Below, in pieces: positions 3,995 to 63,091 of a DNA stretch of 64,000 bases. The notes under the pieces were generated by a model that saw only the letters and a list, made by a program, of their open reading frames with translations, made no database searches and was not told the DNA's origin. Origin of the DNA: an uncultured Syntrophobacterales bacterium (GTDB lineage Bacteria; Desulfobacterota; Syntrophia; Syntrophales; UBA5619); the NCBI GenBank assembly GCA_903928915.1, contig CAIYSL010000085.1, forward strand, positions 1 through 64,000. The letters are read 5' to 3'. The translations under genes were made by a program, and so were the position numbers. Numbering within the stretch: the first letter of the stretch is position 1; the number at the start of each line of letters is the position of its first letter.

Positions 3995-4069
3995 TGGGGC
4001 GTCGTCAAGCGGTAAGACACAGGAATTTGGATCCTGCATTCGGAGGTTCGAATCCTCCCGCCCCAGCCA
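3995..4069 (+). tRNA. tRNA-Gln (anticodon TTG)
   Basis: 75-nt cloverleaf with encoded CCA. The acceptor arms TGGGGCG and CGCCCCA pair, the D arm is GTC...GAC, the anticodon stem CAGGA/TCCTG encloses a 7-nt loop with TTG at positions 34-36, and the T arm GGAGG/CCTCC holds TTCGAAT. It lies between ispE and prs and is probably processed from that transcript. Confidence 0.97.
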
Positions 4070-61873: not shown

Positions 61874-63091
61874 CTAACGGCTGTTCCCGCGTTTCTTCAC
61901 GAGGAAGTACAGCTCCCCCCGCTCTGCCAGGCTTCCCGCCAGCATCTCCGCCTGCGTGCCGCTGCCGCAGAACAGATCGACCCGACCCGGCCCCTTGATC
62001 ACGCCGCCCGCATCCTGGCTGACGACGAAGCGCGAGAAGGGCGTCCAGGACTCCACGCCTCCATCCCTGTCGAGTTTCGGCTTTCTCGCCCGCATGAAGG
62101 CCAGGGCGCCGCGCGGGAAGACCGCCGCGTCGGTGGCGATCGAACGGCCCGCCGTCAAGATCTCGCCGAGCGAACCGACCGGACCCTCGGTGACTTCACG
62201 GAAGAAGATGAAACTCTCGTTGTGGCCGAGGATCTCCGGGAGTTCCTCGGGGTGCTCCCGCAGGTAACGTTTGATCGACCGGTAGGATATCTCCGCAGCG
62301 GAAATCCTCCCCGTTTCCCGCAGGTACCGGGCCAAGCTCTGCCACGGTCGTCCGTTCTTCAGGGCGTAGCCGATTTGCAGGAGCCTTCCGTCGGGCAGTC
62401 GAATCTTGCCGGAGCCCTAGGTGTGGAGAAAGAAGAGATCGATCCGGTCGTCCACCCAGGCAATCTCGAGCCCCCGGCCCGCAAGCGCGCCGAGCTCTTC
62501 GATCTCGTTCCGGCTGTAATAGGGAATGAGTTCCCCGTTCCTGACGCGGCCGATCAGCTGTTCGTACGGGTACCGCTCGGCGAATCGGCCGAGGTTGACC
62601 ACGACGGCATCCTCCGGGGCCCGGTAGACGGGGTAGCGGTCCCGCTCGGTCTTTACGAGCGAACCGCTGATGATCGGTTCGAAATACCCCGTGAACAGGA
62701 CCGTATTCCTGCCGTCCCCGCCGGTCGACTGATAGACGTCGAAGCCCTCCCGGATCCGCACCTGTTTGAGCGGGTCGGGTTCATCGCGCCGGAGGATCTC
62801 CCGGAGGGCGATCAGGGTCTCCCGCAGCTCCCGGACGGTGACCATGGCCTCGCCCATCCGGCGGGGTCCGTCGCCGGCTGCGCGATCGTAATACCGGAGG
62901 CTCTTCTCGACGGCCCGCTCCAGCGAGGCAAGGTCCATGTCGTCGGCAAACAGCGGAACGCGTTCGGGGGGCAGCAGCACGAGGGCGGGCGGTTTTTCCA
63001 CCCGGGGGGGTGGCACGGGTCGGGTTACCGGGACCGCGCACCCGGCGAGCAGAACGAGGGCCAGAGCAAACAGCAGGGCGCGTCGTGCCAT
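61874..63091 (-). pseudogene. mltA: Murein lytic transglycosylase A interrupted by an in-frame amber codon
   Basis: Lipoprotein (LVLLAGC, Cys about residue 18) with MltA domain and C-terminal 3D-like domain. The frame is continuous from 63091 to 61874 except for a TAG at 62417-62419, at the place of the conserved Gln in the HTQGSG motif (LFFLHT-stop-GSGKIRLPDG). Both sides keep good homology, including the catalytic Asp-type motif VDLFCGSGTQAEML. A CAG to TAG change explains it. It may be a recent pseudogene, an amber-suppressed gene or a sequencing error. It lies 1 bp after the acetyltransferase gene. Confidence 0.85.

What the first reader, a model, noticed from the sequence alone, without database searches (positions are those of the whole stretch)
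61874..63091. mltA with an in-frame amber at the conserved Gln of QGSG
Frame and homology continue on both sides of TAG 62417-62419. A single CAG to TAG change fits; the position is a highly conserved residue. The second half also carries plausible internal starts, so split function or suppression is conceivable.
Basis: partly seen in the sequence, partly recalled or inferred. Interest (0 to 1): 0.6.

Follow-up and report, generated by a model that had tools for sequence, protein, structure and literature searches.

The report
Recently stop-interrupted mltA cell-wall gene
A single stop codon cuts short an otherwise intact and well-conserved cell-wall-trimming enzyme gene (mltA) in an uncultured Syntrophales-type bacterium; this looks like a fresh one-letter mutation or a sequence-assembly error rather than a new way of reading the genetic code.

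Summary
On the minus strand, 63091..61874 encodes a lipoprotein of the MltA lytic transglycosylase family with a TAG at 62419-62417 (codon 225). The TAG falls on the Gln of the QGSG motif, a known substrate-binding residue. Every one of 110 related loci aligned there has Gln (85 CAG, 25 CAA), and the six other genomes of the genus show no internal stop. Both halves are otherwise as conserved as in intact relatives: 0 of 52 near-invariant residues are changed and the part after the stop shows no extra divergence. So the change is very recent or a consensus error.

Recoding is not supported. RF1 is intact, TAG ends about 14 of 45 predicted genes in the window including mltA itself, no PylS and no CUA tRNA were found, 106 AMP-binding/ABC matches contain no in-frame TAG, and no structure follows the stop. 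"Plausible internal starts" is wrong: the first ATG after the stop is codon 333, and a TTG at 253 has no ribosome site. The product would lack the catalytic Asp372. Loss is plausibly tolerated: four SLT-domain genes and one MltG gene are intact. Reads are needed to separate mutation from error. Ordinary.

The parts
61874..63091 (-). mltA-like gene (membrane-bound lytic murein transglycosylase A), 405 codons plus a terminal TAG, interrupted at codon 225
   Evidence: conserved neighbourhood GNAT-mltA(-ubiA) in genus and family relatives
62417..62419 (-). in-frame amber TAG at the position of the Gln of QGSG (codon 225)
   Evidence: Gln in 110 of 110 aligned relatives
63038..63091 (-). signal peptide with lipobox LAGC (codons 1-18)
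   Evidence: sequence
62198..62698 (-). MltA domain (PF03562), cut by the stop
61901..62146 (-). 3D domain (PF06725), wholly downstream of the stop
61976..61978 (-). codon 372 (GAT), aligned with the catalytic Asp354 of A. baumannii MltA; not made if translation stops at the amber
   Evidence: residue roles from PMC8562663
61874..61876 (-). terminal stop of the gene, also TAG

Best explanation
A single recent nonsense substitution (C-to-T in the coding strand, CAG-type Gln codon to TAG) has inactivated the only mltA copy of this bacterium. Translation ends after 224 residues. The truncated lipoprotein has the membrane anchor and the first part of the fold, but lacks the substrate-binding Gln/Ser/Tyr/Asp residues from the stop onward and the catalytic Asp. 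Cell-wall turnover is then presumably carried by the remaining lytic transglycosylases. Shown: the stop, the universal Gln in relatives, undecayed sequence on both sides, and normal use of TAG as stop. Inferred: that the base is real in the cells, that the product is inactive, and that the other enzymes compensate.
For: Codon 225 is CAG (85) or CAA (25) in all 110 related loci aligned. In 80 relative genomes no MltA match other than this one has an internal stop, nor do the matches in the six other genomes of the genus. No other damage: 0 of 52 near-invariant residues altered, and the divergence of the half after the stop is in line with intact pairs. It is the single MltA gene, in its native neighbourhood. 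RF1 intact and TAG ends about 14 of 45 predicted genes. Redundancy: four intact SLT-domain genes and one MltG. Nine of 80 relatives, five of them high-quality, have no MltA match, so loss seems tolerated. In E. coli single and multiple LT knockouts are viable (PMC10139938).
Against: No reads are available, so a consensus error is not excluded. The complete lack of further decay fits an error as well as a recent mutation. No second strain of the species is held.
Confidence: 0.58

Rival explanations
1. Sequencing or assembly consensus error, or a minority-strain variant fixed in the consensus of a draft assembly (141 contigs, 3.59% contamination, probably a metagenome bin). In the living population the gene is intact.
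For: The genome is a fragmented draft and its closest relatives are metagenome bins. Nothing else in the gene is damaged. The changed base creates a CTAG tetranucleotide, which is strongly avoided in this window: 7 sites (14 counted over both strands) against about 36 (73) expected.
Against: Substitution errors are rare in short-read consensus (general knowledge). No other gene of the window was found interrupted in this way.
Confidence: 0.34
2. The amber is read through, by a suppressor tRNA, pyrrolysine insertion or near-cognate Gln-tRNA, so that full-length MltA is made at a useful level.
For: The C-terminal half is under the same constraint as in intact relatives. A Gln-tRNA with anticodon UUG (3995-4069) could misread UAG weakly (general knowledge). 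The tRNA set looks incomplete (no Asp, Ile, Ala-UGC or Val-UAC found).
Against: No tRNA with anticodon CUA among those identified. No PylS over cut-off; best cross-hit 24.5 bits against a cut-off of 178, while one of the 14 control genomes passes it. RF1 intact. TAG is a common normal stop and ends this gene too. 25 AMP-binding and 81 ABC-ATPase matches contain no in-frame TAG. No RNA structure follows the stop (z = 0.11).
Confidence: 0.06
3. The gene has been split into two functional proteins, the second starting inside the C-terminal half and complementing the first.
For: Both halves are conserved.
Against: The first standard start after the stop is TTG at codon 253 without a ribosome-binding site; the first ATG is codon 333. 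A C-terminal product would lack a signal peptide while MltA acts outside the inner membrane. No relative shows the split.
Confidence: 0.02

Closest known systems
MltA, lytic transglycosylase family 2 (E. coli 2ae0, A. baumannii 7esj, Neisseria GNA33 2g5d)
   Same: Lipobox signal peptide, MltA domain plus 3D domain, QGSG motif region, catalytic-type Asp (codon 372) in the C-terminal 3D domain.
   Different: In-frame TAG at the substrate-binding Gln (Gln213 in A. baumannii numbering, PMC8562663), so the standard product is cut before the 3D domain.
Ordinary recent nonsense pseudogenes in bacterial genomes
   Same: Single substitution, no other decay, redundant function.
   Different: Nothing evident; reads not available to exclude error.
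Pyrrolysine / UAG recoding systems of Deltaproteobacteria (e.g. PMC8318568)
   Same: In-frame UAG inside a conserved gene.
   Different: No PylS or CUA tRNA found; UAG replaces Gln in a cell-wall enzyme, whereas known Pyl sites lie in genes such as methylamine methyltransferases (general knowledge).

Membership tests
MltA (PF03562 / LT family 2) | MltA domain plus C-terminal 3D domain | tested here: met
   Only if read through the stop: PF03562 187 bits and PF06725 60 bits. The unsuppressed 224-residue product lacks the 3D domain.
MltA (PF03562 / LT family 2) | catalytic Asp and substrate-binding Gln/Ser/Tyr/Asp | tested here: met
   Asp360, Asp372, Ser227 and Tyr242 are encoded after the stop; the Gln itself is the TAG, so met by the read-through frame except for that residue (residue roles from PMC8562663).
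Functional single-chain MltA enzyme | uninterrupted reading frame | tested here: not met
   TAG at codon 225.
UAG recoding (pyrrolysine or suppressor tRNA) | PylS or a tRNA with anticodon CUA | tested here: not met
   No PylS over cut-off; no CUA tRNA among 46 tRNA matches. The draft genome may lack a few tRNAs.
UAG reassignment genome-wide | UAG not used as terminator, RF1 lost, many in-frame UAGs | tested here: not met
   About 14 of 45 predicted genes end in TAG; RF1 533 bits; no TAG inside 106 domain matches.
Recent nonsense pseudogene | stop present in reads of the organism | not testable with these tools
   No reads held.

The most novel reading that the evidence does not exclude
UAG in this gene is read as an amino acid (Gln) at useful efficiency, by an unrecognised tRNA or by near-cognate Gln-tRNA, so that MltA amount is set by readthrough.
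Probability: 0.04. Interest if true: 0.55.

Novelty: already known. Interest (0 to 1): 0.12.

Why it matters
It matters little: single nonsense changes in redundant cell-wall hydrolases are ordinary, and drafts of uncultured bacteria contain base errors. The practical use is for annotation: the gene should be marked as interrupted, not as recoded or as two genes.

Tried and rejected
Genome-wide UAG reassignment and pyrrolysine: rejected as far as the draft allows. CUA tRNA pattern search: nine matches; seven coincide with ordinary tRNAs or a partial copy of tRNA-Leu (C33:523), one overlaps the selenocysteine tRNA (C43), and one lies inside a release-factor-like gene (C14); none is a CUA tRNA. 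Methylated-cytosine hotspot (the site would read CCAGG with Gln, a Dcm-type motif): no C5-methyltransferase in the genome (PF00145, 0 matches with good controls), so not supported. Downstream readthrough structure: none. Other interrupted genes in the window: the five other same-frame ORF pairs are neighbouring genes of different families such as an EF-G-like GTPase, a sigma-54 activator, OEP/HlyD and CCG. Apparent internal stops in some relatives' alignments are just their natural C-terminal ends.

Full report
What is there. The gene is on the minus strand, 63091 to 61874. It begins with a lipoprotein signal peptide (MARRALLFALALVLLAGC), runs 224 codons, meets TAG at 62419-62417, and continues in the same frame for 180 codons to a second TAG at 61876-61874. 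Read through, it matches the Pfam MltA domain over its full length and then the 3D domain, and solved MltA structures across the stop. The window is contig C85 positions 1-64000 of a 4.34 Mb, 141-contig draft genome. Its nearest named relatives are Syntrophus/Syntrophaceae bins.

The residue. In 110 related loci aligned at this position the codon is CAG (85) or CAA (25), with no other residue (some loci come from the same genome through two searches, so the number of independent genes is smaller). All six other genomes of the genus held here show no internal stop in their match, and of the MltA matches in 80 relative genomes none has an internal stop except this one. In A. baumannii and E. coli MltA the Gln and Ser of this motif (Gln213/Ser215 and Gln182/Ser184) are named as substrate-binding residues, and Asp354/Asp328 as the catalytic residue (PMC8562663). 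By the alignment the Gln corresponds to codon 225 here (chain residue 191, offset 22 to the paper's numbering, with the catalytic Asp at chain residue 332 showing the same offset). The catalytic Asp is codon 372, 147 codons after the stop.

Constraint. Taking columns that are at least 97% identical across MltA proteins of at least 45% identity, the window protein departs from none of 20 in the first part and none of 32 in the second. Distances after the stop relative to before it (ratio 0.61-0.87) lie within the range for pairs of intact genes (0.19-1.03), and codon changes are mostly synonymous after the stop. There is no sign of relaxed selection after the stop, so the stop is recent, erroneous or suppressed. 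The flanking genes are the same as in the genus: GNAT acetyltransferase upstream and, where the locus reaches far enough, the UbiA-family prenyltransferase or the next conserved gene downstream. It is the native locus and the only MltA gene in the genome.

Is UAG read as an amino acid here? The evidence is against it. Predicted genes of the window end in TGA 25, TAG 14 and TAA 6 times (a simple codon-score gene picker, so approximate, and the count of 14 TAG includes the amber itself). The gene itself ends in TAG. Release factor 1 is intact. No PylS passes its cut-off. Forty-six tRNA matches were examined: ARAGORN names no CUA anticodon, and the two it did not call are a tRNA-Phe-like fragment and a truncated tRNA-Arg at a contig end. 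The set seems to lack a few expected tRNAs, so absence is not complete proof. None of 25 AMP-binding and 81 ABC-ATPase matches contains an in-frame TAG; a single ABC fragment has two TGA. The RNA after the stop is no more structured than shuffles.

Could it be two genes? After the stop the first start-like codon is TTG at codon 253, with no clear ribosome-binding site before it; the first ATG is codon 333.

Can the cell do without it? Four SLT-domain genes and one MltG-family gene are intact, nine of 80 relatives (five of 55 high-quality ones) have no MltA match, and E. coli tolerates single and multiple lytic transglycosylase deletions (PMC10139938). Loss by a point mutation is thus unremarkable.

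Mutation or error? This cannot be decided here. The change would be a single transition. A Dcm-type methylation hotspot was considered, because the site with Gln would read CCAGG, but no C5-methyltransferase was found. The altered sequence creates a CTAG, which is rare in the window. That is compatible with a recent or erroneous base, but weak. My split is 0.58 real recent mutation, 0.34 error or strain mixture, 0.06 readthrough, 0.02 split gene. Either way the finding is ordinary.

Noticed in passing
L178 514-623 (G000:C33 around 523) and L179 1432-1541 (C33:47162): A roughly 110-base, 88% identical copy of the tRNA-Leu(CAG) region lies in opposite orientation about 47 kb from the tRNA on the same contig; it may be an attachment-site remnant of an integrated element.
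   Followed up: partly
L171 (G000:C63:31063-31131): A degenerate copy of the tRNA-Phe region (86% over 117 bases against the intact tRNA-Phe locus L129), not called by ARAGORN; possibly another attachment-site remnant.
   Followed up: partly
L181 1485-1582 (G000:C43:75081): The genome has a selenocysteine tRNA (anticodon TCA), so in-frame TGA codons elsewhere in this genome may be real selenocysteines.
   Followed up: no
G000:C50:3653-3925: ABC-ATPase fragment with two in-frame TGA codons, probably a decayed pseudogene.
   Followed up: no
window 1-64000: The tetranucleotide CTAG is strongly avoided: 7 sites against about 36 expected.
   Followed up: partly
G000:C7:4663-4733 and G000:C79:34789-34859: Two tRNA-Gln(CTG) matches of equal score, each close to a contig end; possibly one gene at the edges of an unresolved repeat.
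   Followed up: no
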